A stretch of DNA of 64,000 nucleotides from Gottschalkiaceae bacterium SANA. GTDB taxonomy: Bacteria; Bacillota; Clostridia; Tissierellales; GPF-1. The position numbers and the translations under genes are program-made. This document shows positions 12,149 through 39,615 of this stretch, piece by piece. Each line of letters starts with the position of its first letter. The first letter of the stretch is position 1. Where the stretch lies: NCBI GenBank assembly GCA_036323355.1, contig AP028876.1, positions 806,001 through 870,000 on the forward strand, in the 5' to 3' direction. The notes beneath the pieces were generated by a model. The model had not been told where the DNA came from, searched no databases, and saw nothing but the letters and a program-made list of their open reading frames with translations.

Positions 12149-12549
12149 TAAAAAGACATACTAGGCTCCTTATTCTTTTTGGTGGATTTTTAGTTTTTGG
12201 AATCAATACCCTTGTTCCGCTTTCTTTGGGACTCACTTTTGGAGTCGCGTTGATTGGAATTGCATTGGGTCAACAGGGTGTCTGGTTCTTAGCTGGCATT
12301 GGACTGTTCTTCTCGACGATCTATGCAACCACGGTAATTTTGATTCAAGAAGAGTTTAAGGAGGACGGCGTGCAGGTCATGGAGGTTATTCTTGCGACAA
12401 ACGCCATCATGATCTCGGTAATGAATTATATGATCGGCATGCTAAACGATCATTTGGGCGTAAGGGTTGGCATCCTCATTATGCCGTTTAATTTGATGAT
12501 TGCATGGGCAGCCTATCAATGGATTGCACATAAAAGGAGAAGCGCATAA
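12145..12549 (+). pseudogene. Remnant: C-terminal part of an MFS transporter
   Basis: 134 codons open from a TTG, encoding four to five hydrophobic helices arranged like the last third of a major facilitator transporter. MLNDHLGVRVGI near 100-112 corresponds to the loop before the last helices. The eight or so N-terminal helices are absent. No ribosome site lies before the TTG, which overlaps the stop of the malic-enzyme fragment in another frame. It is most likely a dead fragment left by the same deletion. A truncated expressed membrane protein is less likely. Confidence 0.65.
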
Positions 12550-12591
12550 GCGCTTCTTCATCACTTTTAGATAACTGAATGAGATCGCCTT

Positions 12592-12616
12592 ATACTCCTA
12601 GCGGAGTATTTTTTTG
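12592..12616 (+). terminator. Rho-independent terminator
   Basis: ATACTCC / GGAGTAT stem with a TAGC loop, followed by seven T. It is the old terminator of the transporter remnant. Confidence 0.75.
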
Positions 12617-12641
12617 TTTTTACTGAAACGCCATTTATTTA

Positions 12642-30873: not shown

Positions 30874-32430
30874 CTATCGGAATGAAGGTGGAGCAGTTCT
30901 TGGTGCTGTTAGGTAAATGACATCACTGCCTGTGAAGGCAACGCCATCGAGATCTCTACCGATAATCGTCAGTTCCATGATGCATTCAAGATCAGGTTCA
31001 ATCAACGAAAGCACATCTTCCATAGAGAACATTAAGATAAGGTCGCAATACCCATCACCTTGATGTGGTCCATGGCTTGGAGACATATCCATATAAGCCC
31101 AACGCAGTGGTTCGATTTCCATATCTTTTCCATTCATGGTTAATCGAATCGTTGGTTCATCGATACATTTAACGTTAAATTCTTCACTTCCAAGAATGGA
31201 TATATCAAGCATACCCATCGGTTTTGGACAGACAACATTCTTGATGGTACCTGGTCGAATGTCGATGTCAATTTCGGTTACGACTGGAGGTGGTGAAACC
31301 TTTTGAAGGGTTAGCAGCGCCCAGGTGGTTGATAGGATTGAGTTGGTTTCATAATCATATCTAGTTTGTGGCCAAGAGTTATTAGCCAGTTGTTCATCCA
31401 AGAGCACGTCGGACACCTCGTCAAACCAATCAACTGGATTGCCGTCGACAGTCAGGATGTCAATCCCATAGGATTCAAGACCTTTCATCATTGTGAAAGT
31501 AGCTTGATAGTTTGATGGACTACCTCTCCACCCAGGATCTTGGTTAGCTACATTCCAATAATCTTCGATGAAGCCAATGGCTGCCTCGACTCTTGGATCA
31601 TTCGGTGCGTATCCAAGGTAGGCCATTTGTTGCAACAGGTTCCCGGTTTTTAATATGTTGTACCAAGACCCTGGACCTATATATCCTGATCCGCCGTTCG
31701 CATCATTTTGGATGTAATTAACCCAGAGATCCAATTCCTCTTTGACAAACGTTGGAACAGTACAGTTGAACCCATAATCGGAATGCTCAGCGAAAGCCAG
31801 CCCCATTACAACGTATCCTGAAATGGAGTTGTCGCTTCTGCTCGAATTATTATTCAGAGCAGTGTAGGTCCATCCGCCTCTAAATTTGCTAGTGGGATCG
31901 GTTTGACCATATGCAAGGTAGTCAACAACGTCTTGTGCGACGTCGCCGTAGGTTTCTCCCGTAAGTGGTCCAGTGACAACGAGACGATCTGGAGTGCTTG
32001 AGGCAATAATTGCCATCAGGGCAATGCTGGTTGTGTAGGTTTCATAGCCACCGAGTGCAAAAACAACCCCATTGCCGTTTCCGTTGGAATCTGGATCCCC
32101 AGCAGTCTGCAGTCCGATAGGGGTGCTTACAGCATGTGCAAATAAGTAGTCGAGACCATTTTCGACATTTTCTTTAAATGGATAGTCAACATGAAACGGT
32201 GTGCCAAATTCTGGATCATTCAAGGCATGGGTTTCAAATTTCAGCAGTGCAAGACCGGTTCGGGCAATATCATCGCCCCAGGAACCATTTTCATGTTGCG
32301 AATCGGCCAGCCATTCCATACCGAGGTAGGTTTGTTCTGCGATCACTTCTGGTGTTGCAGCAAAAGCAGCACCTGTAAACGCTAGTGAAATCATGATCAA
32401 TAGCGCTACAATTTTTCTAAAAGCTTTCAT
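30874..32430 (-). CDS. Secreted protein with prenyltransferase/squalene-oxidase-type repeats
   Basis: 518 residues. Signal peptide about 1-24 (MKAFRKI...GAAFAATP). Residues about 30-375 contain repeated alpha-hairpin units with the Q-x-x-x-G-x-W hallmark of terpenoid-toroid repeats: SQHENGSWGDD, QDPGWRGSP and LANNSWPQTRY. The C-terminal about 130 residues begin DIDIRPGTIKNVVCPKPMG and continue with FNVKCIDEPTIRL and FTGSDVIYL. That is the pattern of a beta-rich domain often found at the C-terminus of secreted bacterial proteins (IDIKPGS...SINP type). It is probably a binding or scaffold protein, not a cyclase, since export is clear. TAAAGGAGGAAACA is the ribosome site. A long structured leader precedes it. 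Confidence 0.8.
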   Translation of the reverse strand: MKAFRKIVALLIMISLAFTGAAFAATPEVIAEQTYLGMEWLADSQHENGSWGDDIARTGLALLKFETHALNDPEFGTPFHVDYPFKENVENGLDYLFAHAVSTPIGLQTAGDPDSNGNGNGVVFALGGYETYTTSIALMAIIASSTPDRLVVTGPLTGETYGDVAQDVVDYLAYGQTDPTSKFRGGWTYTALNNNSSRSDNSISGYVVMGLAFAEHSDYGFNCTVPTFVKEELDLWVNYIQNDANGGSGYIGPGSWYNILKTGNLLQQMAYLGYAPNDPRVEAAIGFIEDYWNVANQDPGWRGSPSNYQATFTMMKGLESYGIDILTVDGNPVDWFDEVSDVLLDEQLANNSWPQTRYDYETNSILSTTWALLTLQKVSPPPVVTEIDIDIRPGTIKNVVCPKPMGMLDISILGSEEFNVKCIDEPTIRLTMNGKDMEIEPLRWAYMDMSPSHGPHQGDGYCDLILMFSMEDVLSLIEPDLECIMELTIIGRDLDGVAFTGSDVIYLTAPRTAPPSFR

Positions 32431-32549
32431 TGTTTCCTCCTTTAGATTTTTTTGAGGTTAGGTTGCAGTGAAATGTTTTTCTATGAATCATCTCCTTTTG
32501 GTGTAGTTTTCTGTGCGATCATTGTGTTTAGCAAGTTTCTACAAAACAC

Positions 32550-32693
32550 AAAAAGACTCCCATGGAAGTGGAAGTCAGCATTCTTAACACCATAACTAAT
32601 CGTTATCCGCAAACTGCGTACAACGATTTTTCATAAGGGTATTCGCTTCAAGAATGATAAACTGACAAAAAAATGCCAGATGAGTTGACTTCC
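32550..32693 (-). ncRNA. Candidate attenuator/riboswitch-like leader RNA
   Basis: Read on the minus strand. Stem P1 pairs CATTCTT (32650-32656) with AAGAATG (32579-32585), P2 pairs AATCGTT (32622-32628) with AACGATT (32598-32604), and P3 is CGCA/TGCG (32608-32618). A terminator hairpin GACTTCC/GGGAGTC with five T follows at 32550-32576. The left terminator arm can instead pair over 8 bp with GGAAGTCA at 32686-32693. That is the terminator/antiterminator layout of a transcription attenuator, 120 nt before the gene at 30874-32430. I could not match it to a known riboswitch class. Confidence 0.55.
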
Positions 32694-32983
32694 TTGCTTC
32701 CTCTTTGATGTTCGTCCGCTATATGTATACCCGACAAAAAATGAAAACGGTATCTGAATCAATTATTTAAGTAAATAAAATACGAAATAAACCCATATTT
32801 TTCAATAATAATTACCGTATGCAGTAAAACACACACTTTGTTTACATACGTTTTGTGGTAATTGTATAGAAACGCGAGCGAGTTAACTTGAACAATGGAA
32901 ATATGAATGTCTGAATTTGTAAGAAGTAGTCTTTTTCATGAAAATACGTTTAAGATGCAAAAAAAGTAGAAACTTATTAGTCG

Positions 32984-36944: not shown

Positions 36945-37178
36945 GGAGCGTTGAATAGAAGAGACTGTGAATGGACCTAGTAGGGGATTGAAAAGTTATC
37001 AAGCGAGTCGTTGGTTGGTGTGAAACGACAACTTTTTCCTTGAACTCAGCCGGGAGTCAATCCTTGTAAAAGGATCGGTGAAAACCGTTATCTAAAGAAG
37101 AGGGCATAACTGCCAACTAGAGTGGTACCGCGGGTTTTCTCGTCTCTAAACAAGACAAGAATGCTCGCTTTTTTATAG
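36945..37178 (+). promoter_or_regulatory. T-box riboswitch (leucine) of leuS
   Basis: The antiterminator signature AGAGTGGTACCGCGGG is at about 37120-37135. It is followed by a terminator whose left arm begins in that GCGGG and whose right arm GACAAGAATGCTCGC precedes a T run near 37170-37176. In the presumed Stem I specifier loop the bases GAA-CTC-A (CTC at 37045-37047) give a leucine codon, matching the downstream leuS. Uncharged tRNA-Leu would stabilise the antiterminator and allow leuS expression. Confidence 0.9.
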
Positions 37179-37197: not shown

Positions 37198-39615
37198 ATG
37201 CAAATAAAAACTTATGAGCCTGGCGAGATTGAAAAGAAATGGCAAGGCCGCTGGGAAGAATTACAATGCTATGCAGCAACGAATGATTTGGATAAGGAAA
37301 AGTTCTATGCCTTGATTGAATTCCCTTATCCGTCTGGAAAAGGACTTCACGTAGGACACCCTCGTCCCTATACAGCTTTGGACATTGTGGCCAGAAAACG
37401 CCGCTTGGAAGGATATAATGTTTTATTCCCCATGGGATGGGATGCATTCGGTCTTCCAACGGAAAACTATGCCATTAAGAACAAGGTTCATCCTGCAACG
37501 GTAACTAAAGAGAATGTGGCGAGATTCAAGTCGCAATTGCAATCCTTAGGTTTCTCATTTGATTGGGCCCGGGAAGTCAATACGACGGATCCCAACTACT
37601 ACAAATGGACCCAATGGATTTTCCTTCAATTGTTTAAAAAGGGCTTGGCTTATAAAAAAGAATTCCCCATCAACTGGTGTACAAGCTGTAAGGTTGGCTT
37701 GGCCAATGAGGAAGTTGTCAACGGTGTTTGTGAACGTTGTGGTTCTCAAGTTGTTCAAAAGGTCAAAAACCAGTGGATGTTGAAAATTACCGAGTACGCG
37801 GATCGTTTGATCCAAGACTTGGATGAAGTGGATTATTCAGAAAGAATCAAGACTCAACAGAAAAACTGGATCGGTAAATCCAAAGGGATGGAAGTTGATT
37901 TTGCTATCGCTGGATCCGATGACAAGCTGCGGGTTTACACAACACGTCCGGATACTTTGTATGGAGCAACTTACATGGTAATGTCTCCTGAGCATCCCTA
38001 TATCAAAAAGTACGCCGATCGCATTCAGAATATGGATGCCCTTGAAGCCTATAAGGTGGCGGCTTCAAAGAAATCTGAGTTTGAACGTACGGAATTGGTT
38101 AAAGAGAAAACCGGAGTTGAAATCGATGGCTTGATGGCCATTAATCCAGTTAATGATCAAGAAATTCCAATCTGGATTTCAGATTACGTTTTAATGAGCT
38201 ATGGTACCGGTGCGATTATGGCCGTACCAGCACATGACACCCGTGACTGGGAATTTGCCAAGAAATTTGATTTGCCAATTGTAGAAGTGGTTGCAGGCGG
38301 CAAGGTGGATGAAGAAGCTTTTACGGATATCGCAGAAGGAATCATGATTAATTCCCCGGTGATCGATGGCTTGTCCGTGGCAGATGCCAAAGTGAAGATT
38401 GCTGATTTCATCGTAGAAAAAGGGATTGGTGAGAAAAAGACCAACTTCAAATTGCGCGATTGGGTCTTCTCGCGTCAGCGTTACTGGGGCGAACCAATTC
38501 CAATGGTTTACTGTGAAAAATGTGGTTGGCAGCCAATCGATGAGTCAGAATTGCCTTTGTTGTTGCCGGAGGTTGAATCTCCTGCACCGACTGAAACTGG
38601 AGAGTCTCCATTGGCGAATATGATGGACTGGCGTAGAACTACGTGTCCGCATTGCGGCGGGGAAGCCCTTCGCGAAACGGATACCATGCCTCAATGGGCG
38701 GGTTCAAGCTGGTATTTCCTACGATATATCGATCCGGATAACAGCAAAGCCTTGGCTGATCCTGAATTGTTGAAATACTGGTTGACTGTCGACTGGTACA
38801 ATGGCGGTATGGAGCATACAACCCTTCACTTGTTGTATTCTCGATTCTGGCATAAAGTTTTGTATGATATCGGTGCGGTTCCAACAAAAGAACCTTATCA
38901 AAAAAGAACAAGTCATGGTATGATCTTGGGATCTAATGGCGAGAAGATGAGCAAGTCTCGTGGAAATGTGGTCAATCCAGACGAAGTGGTTGATGAATAT
39001 GGTGCGGATACTCTTCGCATGTACGAAATGTTTATCGGTGACTTTGAGAAGAGCGTGCCTTGGTCCATGAATGGGGTAAAAGGTTGCCGTCGATTCTTAG
39101 ACAAGGTTTGGAAGCTGCAAGGCATGTTAGTGGATGGTGAAGCGTACTCCAAGGAATTGGAAACCATCATGCACAAGACCATCAAGAAGGTTTCTCATGA
39201 CTTTGAAACATTGAAATACAACACGGCCGTTGCGCAGATGATGACCTTTGTCAATGAAGTGATGAAGGTTGGCAAGATCAATCGCGCCGAGTTTAAATCC
39301 CTTCTTATTCTGTTGAATCCAGTTTCTCCTCATGTAACGGAAGAGATGTGGGTAGAAAATGGATACGAAGGATACTTGCATCAGTCGACTTGGCCAACAT
39401 TTGATGAAGCCAAGACGGTGGATTCAGTGATTCAAATGGCGGTTCAAATTAACGGCAAGGTACGTGGTACCATCACCATTCCAAAAGATGCTGACAAGGA
39501 AATTGCGAAAGCGGCTGCCATGGCAGAAGAAAATATCATGGCGCATTTGGAAGGCAAGAATATTGTAAAAGAGATATTCGTTCCGGGACGAATTTTTAAC
39601 ATCGTTGTGAAATAA
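37198..39615 (+). CDS. leuS: Leucyl-tRNA synthetase
   Basis: 805-residue class Ia synthetase that charges tRNA-Leu. Visible are the HIGH-type motif [10 protein letters not shown] near 48-57, the CP1 editing domain with [12 protein letters not shown] near 248 and [19 protein letters not shown] near 336, paired CxxC zinc-type cysteines (CEKCGW, CPHCGG), and KMSKS in [12 protein letters not shown] near 581. Length is normal. AAAGGAGAACGATC precedes the ATG. Expression is controlled by the leucine T-box immediately upstream. Confidence 0.97.

What the first reader, a model, noticed from the sequence alone, without database searches (positions are those of the whole stretch)
32550..32700. Riboswitch-like leader with switchable terminator before a secreted repeat protein
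On the minus strand three nested or adjacent stems (P1 7 bp, P2 7 bp, P3 4 bp) are followed by an intrinsic terminator. The 5' arm of that terminator can pair perfectly over 8 bp with GGAAGTCA located before P1. P1 formation would separate these partners or bring them together, so ligand binding could choose between terminator and antiterminator. The 120-nt leader and the target gene fit control of an exported protein. I could not fit it to GEMM, purine, TPP, SAM, cobalamin or T-box consensus by eye.
Basis: partly seen in the sequence, partly recalled or inferred. Interest (0 to 1): 0.65.

Follow-up and report, generated by a model that had tools for sequence, protein, structure and literature searches.

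The report
Genus-specific RNA leader with switchable terminator
Upstream of a gene for an exported protein in a little-known clostridium lies an RNA leader whose stop signal for transcription can be undone by a competing helix; it matches no known riboswitch family and has one close relative, so it is a fair candidate for a small new RNA switch, but its trigger is unknown.

Summary
On the minus strand, a terminator (32576-32555) is preceded by GGAAGTCA (32693-32686), which pairs with the terminator's 5' arm. I read that pairing as the closing helix (P1) of a three-way junction; the natural reading is an ON switch: P1 formed, no terminator, transcription continues. The only relative found (L009, MAG CSMAG_119) is 70% identical over 217 nt and precedes a 65%-identical orthologue. 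Conservation peaks at an upstream promoter-like block, P1 plus hairpin P2, and the terminator, and drops in the middle and in both flanks. No Rfam family matches; a covariance model finds no further copy in 249 order-level or 391 class-level genomes. Two sequences give one compensatory pair, so covariation is not established. All ten c-di-GMP-I riboswitch matches in this genome precede exported proteins, and six share the terminator-overlap layout. Best reading: a lineage-specific switchable attenuator for an exported protein, trigger unknown; a new small riboswitch class is possible, not shown.

The parts
32727..32755 (-). Promoter-like block AGATACC-N15-CGGGTA(T), spaced like an ECF-sigma -35/-10 pair; would place the transcription start near 32715
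   Evidence: Conserved in L009 with identical 15-nt spacing; 73% identity in this block vs 37% upstream. The sigma assignment is inference; exact match only at these two leaders among three genomes.
32697..32703 (-). GAGGAAG, upstream repeat whose GGAAG can pair with CTTCC in the terminator loop and extend the antiterminator
   Evidence: MFE fold; core GGAA/TTCC present in L009 as well
32686..32693 (-). 5' strand of closing helix P1 (antiterminator), GGAAGTCA
   Evidence: 7 of 8 pairs invariant in L009
32662..32679 (-). Hairpin P2, CTGGCA-TTTTTT-TGTCAG
   Evidence: conserved with one G-U / A-U difference in L009
32579..32656 (-). Variable arm P3, with conserved tip TGCGGATAA (32611-32603)
   Evidence: 55% identity to L009; tip stem keeps 8 pairs with one double change; lower helix CATTCTT/AAGAATG not conserved
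32570..32577 (-). 3' strand of P1, TGACTTCC, overlapping the 5' arm of the terminator
32547..32576 (-). Intrinsic terminator GACTTCCA-CTTCCA-TGGGAGTC-TTTTTGTG
   Evidence: P1 3' strand plus terminator 89% identical in L009
32487..32499 (-). AAAAGGAGATGAT, second SD-like element about 60 nt before the start codon (STAB-SD-like)
   Evidence: Sequence; counterparts in L009 (GAGGAGGTGAT) and in c-di-GMP-I-controlled genes L072, L073, L081, L088
30874..32430 (-). Exported 518-aa protein: signal peptide, alpha/alpha-toroid (squalene-cyclase/transcobalamin-like) repeats, C-terminal IDIxPG..ILGS domain
   Evidence: Pfam SQHop_cyclase_C below cut-off; fold match to 2sqc and transcobalamins from a modest model; own SD at 32443-32428

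Best explanation
A transcription attenuator in the 5' leader of an exported-protein gene. RNA polymerase starts near 32715, and the leader folds into a three-way junction closed by P1 (GGAAGTCA/TGACTTCC) with P2 and a variable arm P3. The 3' strand of P1 is also the 5' arm of the terminator. When P1 is held (by a small molecule at the junction, a protein, or folding kinetics) the terminator cannot form and the gene is on; when P1 opens, transcription stops at 32554-32547. Shown: the two competing pairings, their conservation in a second species and their similar energies. Inferred: promoter, ON polarity, existence and nature of the trigger. The trigger I think most likely is a small molecule; c-di-GMP is a guess from the rest of the regulon.
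For: Terminator, competing helix, similar energies of the two states in both species, fold z-scores. Conservation is peaked on P1, P2 and terminator. No codon periodicity (25/22/21 changes by frame). Orthologous position before orthologous genes. The upstream acetyltransferase gene has a terminator-like stem of its own at 32990-32958 (read from sequence), so this terminator is unlikely to serve it. Six of ten c-di-GMP-I leaders in the same genome have the terminator 5' arm overlapping the aptamer 3' end, so the organism uses this layout.
Against: Only two sequences, one double compensatory change. P3 is poorly conserved. The third species of the genus lacks both gene and leader, so nothing independent can be compared there. 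No transcription data. Conserved P1 strand and terminator could be kept for other reasons.
Confidence: 0.66

Rival explanations
1. The narrower claim: a metabolite-binding riboswitch of a new class (ligand pocket at the P1/P2/P3 junction), possibly another c-di-GMP sensor. It is a special case of the best explanation.
For: Conserved strands lie around the junction (J1/2 CAT, J2/3 TTTA, J3/1 GTT-AGAAT); all ten c-di-GMP-I matches in the genome precede exported proteins, and two in sister species precede proteins sharing this protein's C-terminal domain.
Against: No covariation support; family of two; P3 variable; nothing links the leader itself to a ligand.
Confidence: 0.35
2. A protein-controlled attenuator: an RNA-binding protein grips P2 or the GGAAG repeats and selects the helix.
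For: Conserved short elements (GGAAG-caa-GGAAGTCA, P2) rather than a large conserved core.
Against: No match to any protein-bound leader family in Rfam; no candidate protein identified.
Confidence: 0.2
3. An unregulated attenuator: a partial terminator that sets a constant level, with P1 only a folding accident or a stability element.
For: Similar energies can give constant partial read-through; small family.
Against: The 8-nt complement arises by chance in 0.4% (window) and 0.15% (L009) of shuffles, and is kept in both species.
Confidence: 0.2
4. A degenerated or diverged c-di-GMP-I riboswitch.
For: Terminator 5' arms alike (GACTTCC here; GACTGCC in L073, L080, L083) and shared C-terminal domain of the targets in L073 and L088.
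Against: No Rfam match even at E up to 10; GCAAA and ACGCAAA motifs of the family absent by eye.
Confidence: 0.1
5. Remnant of a coding sequence: L009 has an open 136-codon frame across the leader.
For: Open frame 1355-1765 in L009.
Against: Stops in the window copy, equal change rates in the three codon positions, no Pfam match.
Confidence: 0.03

Closest known systems
c-di-GMP-I riboswitch (RF01051) leaders of the same genus
   Same: Precede exported proteins; in six of ten in this genome the 3' end of the aptamer overlaps the terminator 5' arm
   Different: None of the family's conserved core; no score in Rfam searches
ON-type transcriptional riboswitches whose P1 3' strand is part of the terminator (e.g. 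the pbuE adenine riboswitch; from general knowledge, not tested)
   Same: Mutually exclusive closing helix and terminator, three-way junction
   Different: No known aptamer sequence; ligand unknown; ligand dependence not shown
c-di-GMP-II riboswitch (RF01786)
   Same: Controls surface adhesins and pili in C. difficile (PMC11477304)
   Different: No match in the leader or in the three genomes (whose control genomes were also silent)

Membership tests
c-di-GMP-I riboswitch | Match to the RF01051 covariance model | tested here: not met
   No match at gathering or at E up to 10, while ten loci in the same genome were found, nine of them over the cut-off
c-di-GMP-II riboswitch | Match to the RF01786 covariance model | tested here: not met
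   No match at E up to 10
Any other Rfam 15 riboswitch or leader family | Match above gathering score | tested here: not met
   Only a T-box at 36958-37150 in the whole window
Transcriptional riboswitch (as a kind) | Intrinsic terminator with a mutually exclusive antiterminator | tested here: met
   By sequence and folding energies only
Transcriptional riboswitch (as a kind) | Conserved structured aptamer with covariation | tested here: inconclusive
   Two sequences; one double change
Transcriptional riboswitch (as a kind) | Ligand binding changes termination | not testable with these tools
   Needs in vitro transcription and probing

The most novel reading that the evidence does not exclude
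A new, very rare riboswitch class confined to one clostridial genus, wired into the same exported-protein programme as its c-di-GMP-I switches, perhaps sensing c-di-GMP or a related signal with a different aptamer.
Probability: 0.25. Interest if true: 0.7.

Novelty: new member of a known kind. Interest (0 to 1): 0.42.

Why it matters
If a ligand is found, it adds a rare riboswitch class of the sort expected in the long tail that consensus libraries miss. It would also show how a clostridium with a large c-di-GMP-I regulon sets one exported toroid-repeat protein apart from, or joins it to, that regulon.

Tried and rejected
Rfam at gathering and at E up to 10: nothing at the leader. Leader peptide or ORF remnant: no conserved reading frame, no period 3. 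Whole-genome DNA search in 60 relatives: only L009 above noise. Covariance model R1 over the genus, 249 order and 391 class genomes: only the two known copies; the large scans used stricter filters and can miss weak matches. Weak R1 hits in the window (e.g. 12530-12617) and at L041 201-256 match mainly the terminator; the latter overlaps a c-di-GMP-I switch. Plasmids: none. One viral-contig pattern match, L090, is not supported by the model. Promoter-block search for a regulon: no other convincing site. More distant protein homologues (Paraclostridium ghonii 36%, KSB1 and others) show no model match in the DNA held.

Full report
What is there. The minus strand between 32755 and 32547 holds a leader before an exported 518-aa protein (30874-32430). 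A terminator-like hairpin with a T run lies at 32576-32555. GGAAGTCA at 32693-32686 is perfectly complementary to TGACTTCC at 32577-32570, the outer part of the terminator's 5' arm. The 161- and 186-nt strands fold better than all 200 dinucleotide shuffles (z -3.6 and -3.4). Among 49 terminator-like hairpins in the window, this is the only one with an 8-nt complement in the preceding 170 nt; shuffles give the 8-mer in 0.4% of cases.

The relative. It stands before the orthologue of the same gene (65% protein identity), downstream of an 84%-identical acetyltransferase gene. The third species held, G002, keeps the acetyltransferase and its neighbours but has neither the gene nor the leader at that place, and the model finds no leader elsewhere in it. 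The gene is found in 2 of 249 genomes of the order.

Which parts are conserved. Identity is 73% in a promoter-like block, 79% over the P1 5' strand and P2, 55% over the P3 region, 89% over the P1 3' strand and terminator, against 37% upstream and 48% between terminator and start codon. P1 keeps seven identical pairs; P2 keeps six with one G-U/A-U difference; the P3 tip keeps eight with one double change. Changes fall equally on the three codon positions (25/22/21), so the block is not coding, although L009 happens to have an open frame through it.

How it would work. P1 and the terminator exclude each other. Forcing either in turn gives -51.2 vs -46.5 kcal/mol in the window copy and -39.0 vs -38.5 in L009: two states of similar energy, as expected of a switch, although folding energies are rough and P1 is completed before the terminator during transcription. 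In this geometry whatever stabilises P1 turns the gene on (inference). The upstream block AGATACC-N15-CGGGTA resembles an ECF-type promoter in layout (inference); it would start the transcript near 32715, about 20 nt before P1. A second SD-like sequence, AAAAGGAGATGAT (32499-32487), recurs in similar form in L009 and in several c-di-GMP-I-controlled genes of the genus; it resembles the STAB-SD element of Agaisse and Lereclus 1996 (seen here only as a title in reference lists).

Context. The three genomes carry 10, 11 and 11 c-di-GMP-I matches. All ten in the window's genome precede an ORF that begins with a signal-peptide-like stretch (two of the ten are in tandem before one gene). In the sister genomes the same holds for most; a few loci were too short or gave no reliable gene. 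Two products, in G001 and G002, share the window protein's C-terminal domain. Six of the ten in the window's genome have the terminator 5' arm overlapping the aptamer's 3' end. The window leader shares this layout but not the c-di-GMP-I sequence, and it scores with no Rfam model. That c-di-GMP is its ligand is therefore only a guess.

The target. Pfam gives a sub-threshold squalene-hopene cyclase C-terminal hit. An AlphaFold model of modest confidence (mean pLDDT 68) resembles alpha/alpha toroids: squalene-hopene cyclase, E 8e-4, and transcobalamins, E 3e-3 to 7e-3, with low TM-scores. Its function is unknown; transcobalamin likeness is a lead only, and no cobalamin riboswitch was detected.

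Judgement. A switchable attenuator is likely (0.66). A true small-molecule riboswitch is possible, and its novelty would lie in being a very small family. Two sequences cannot establish covariation, so no class is claimed.

Noticed in passing
window 36958-37150 (+): T-box leader (RF00230, 103.7 bits) before the leucyl-tRNA-synthetase-like ORF at 37198-39615.
   Followed up: no
L060-L089: About ten c-di-GMP-I riboswitches per genome in this genus, apparently a regulon of exported proteins, some in tandem (e.g. L068 and L071, spaced about 37 nt apart).
   Followed up: partly
L041 2142-2258: Molybdenum-cofactor (Moco) riboswitch, 64.3 bits, downstream of the VWA-like exported protein.
   Followed up: no
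L083 1292-1384: Selenocysteine tRNA just upstream of a c-di-GMP-I riboswitch in the window's genome.
   Followed up: no
window 32487-32499 (-); L072, L073, L081, L088: Recurrent second SD-like element (AAGGAGGNGAT type) well upstream of the true SD in leaders of exported proteins, STAB-SD-like.
   Followed up: partly
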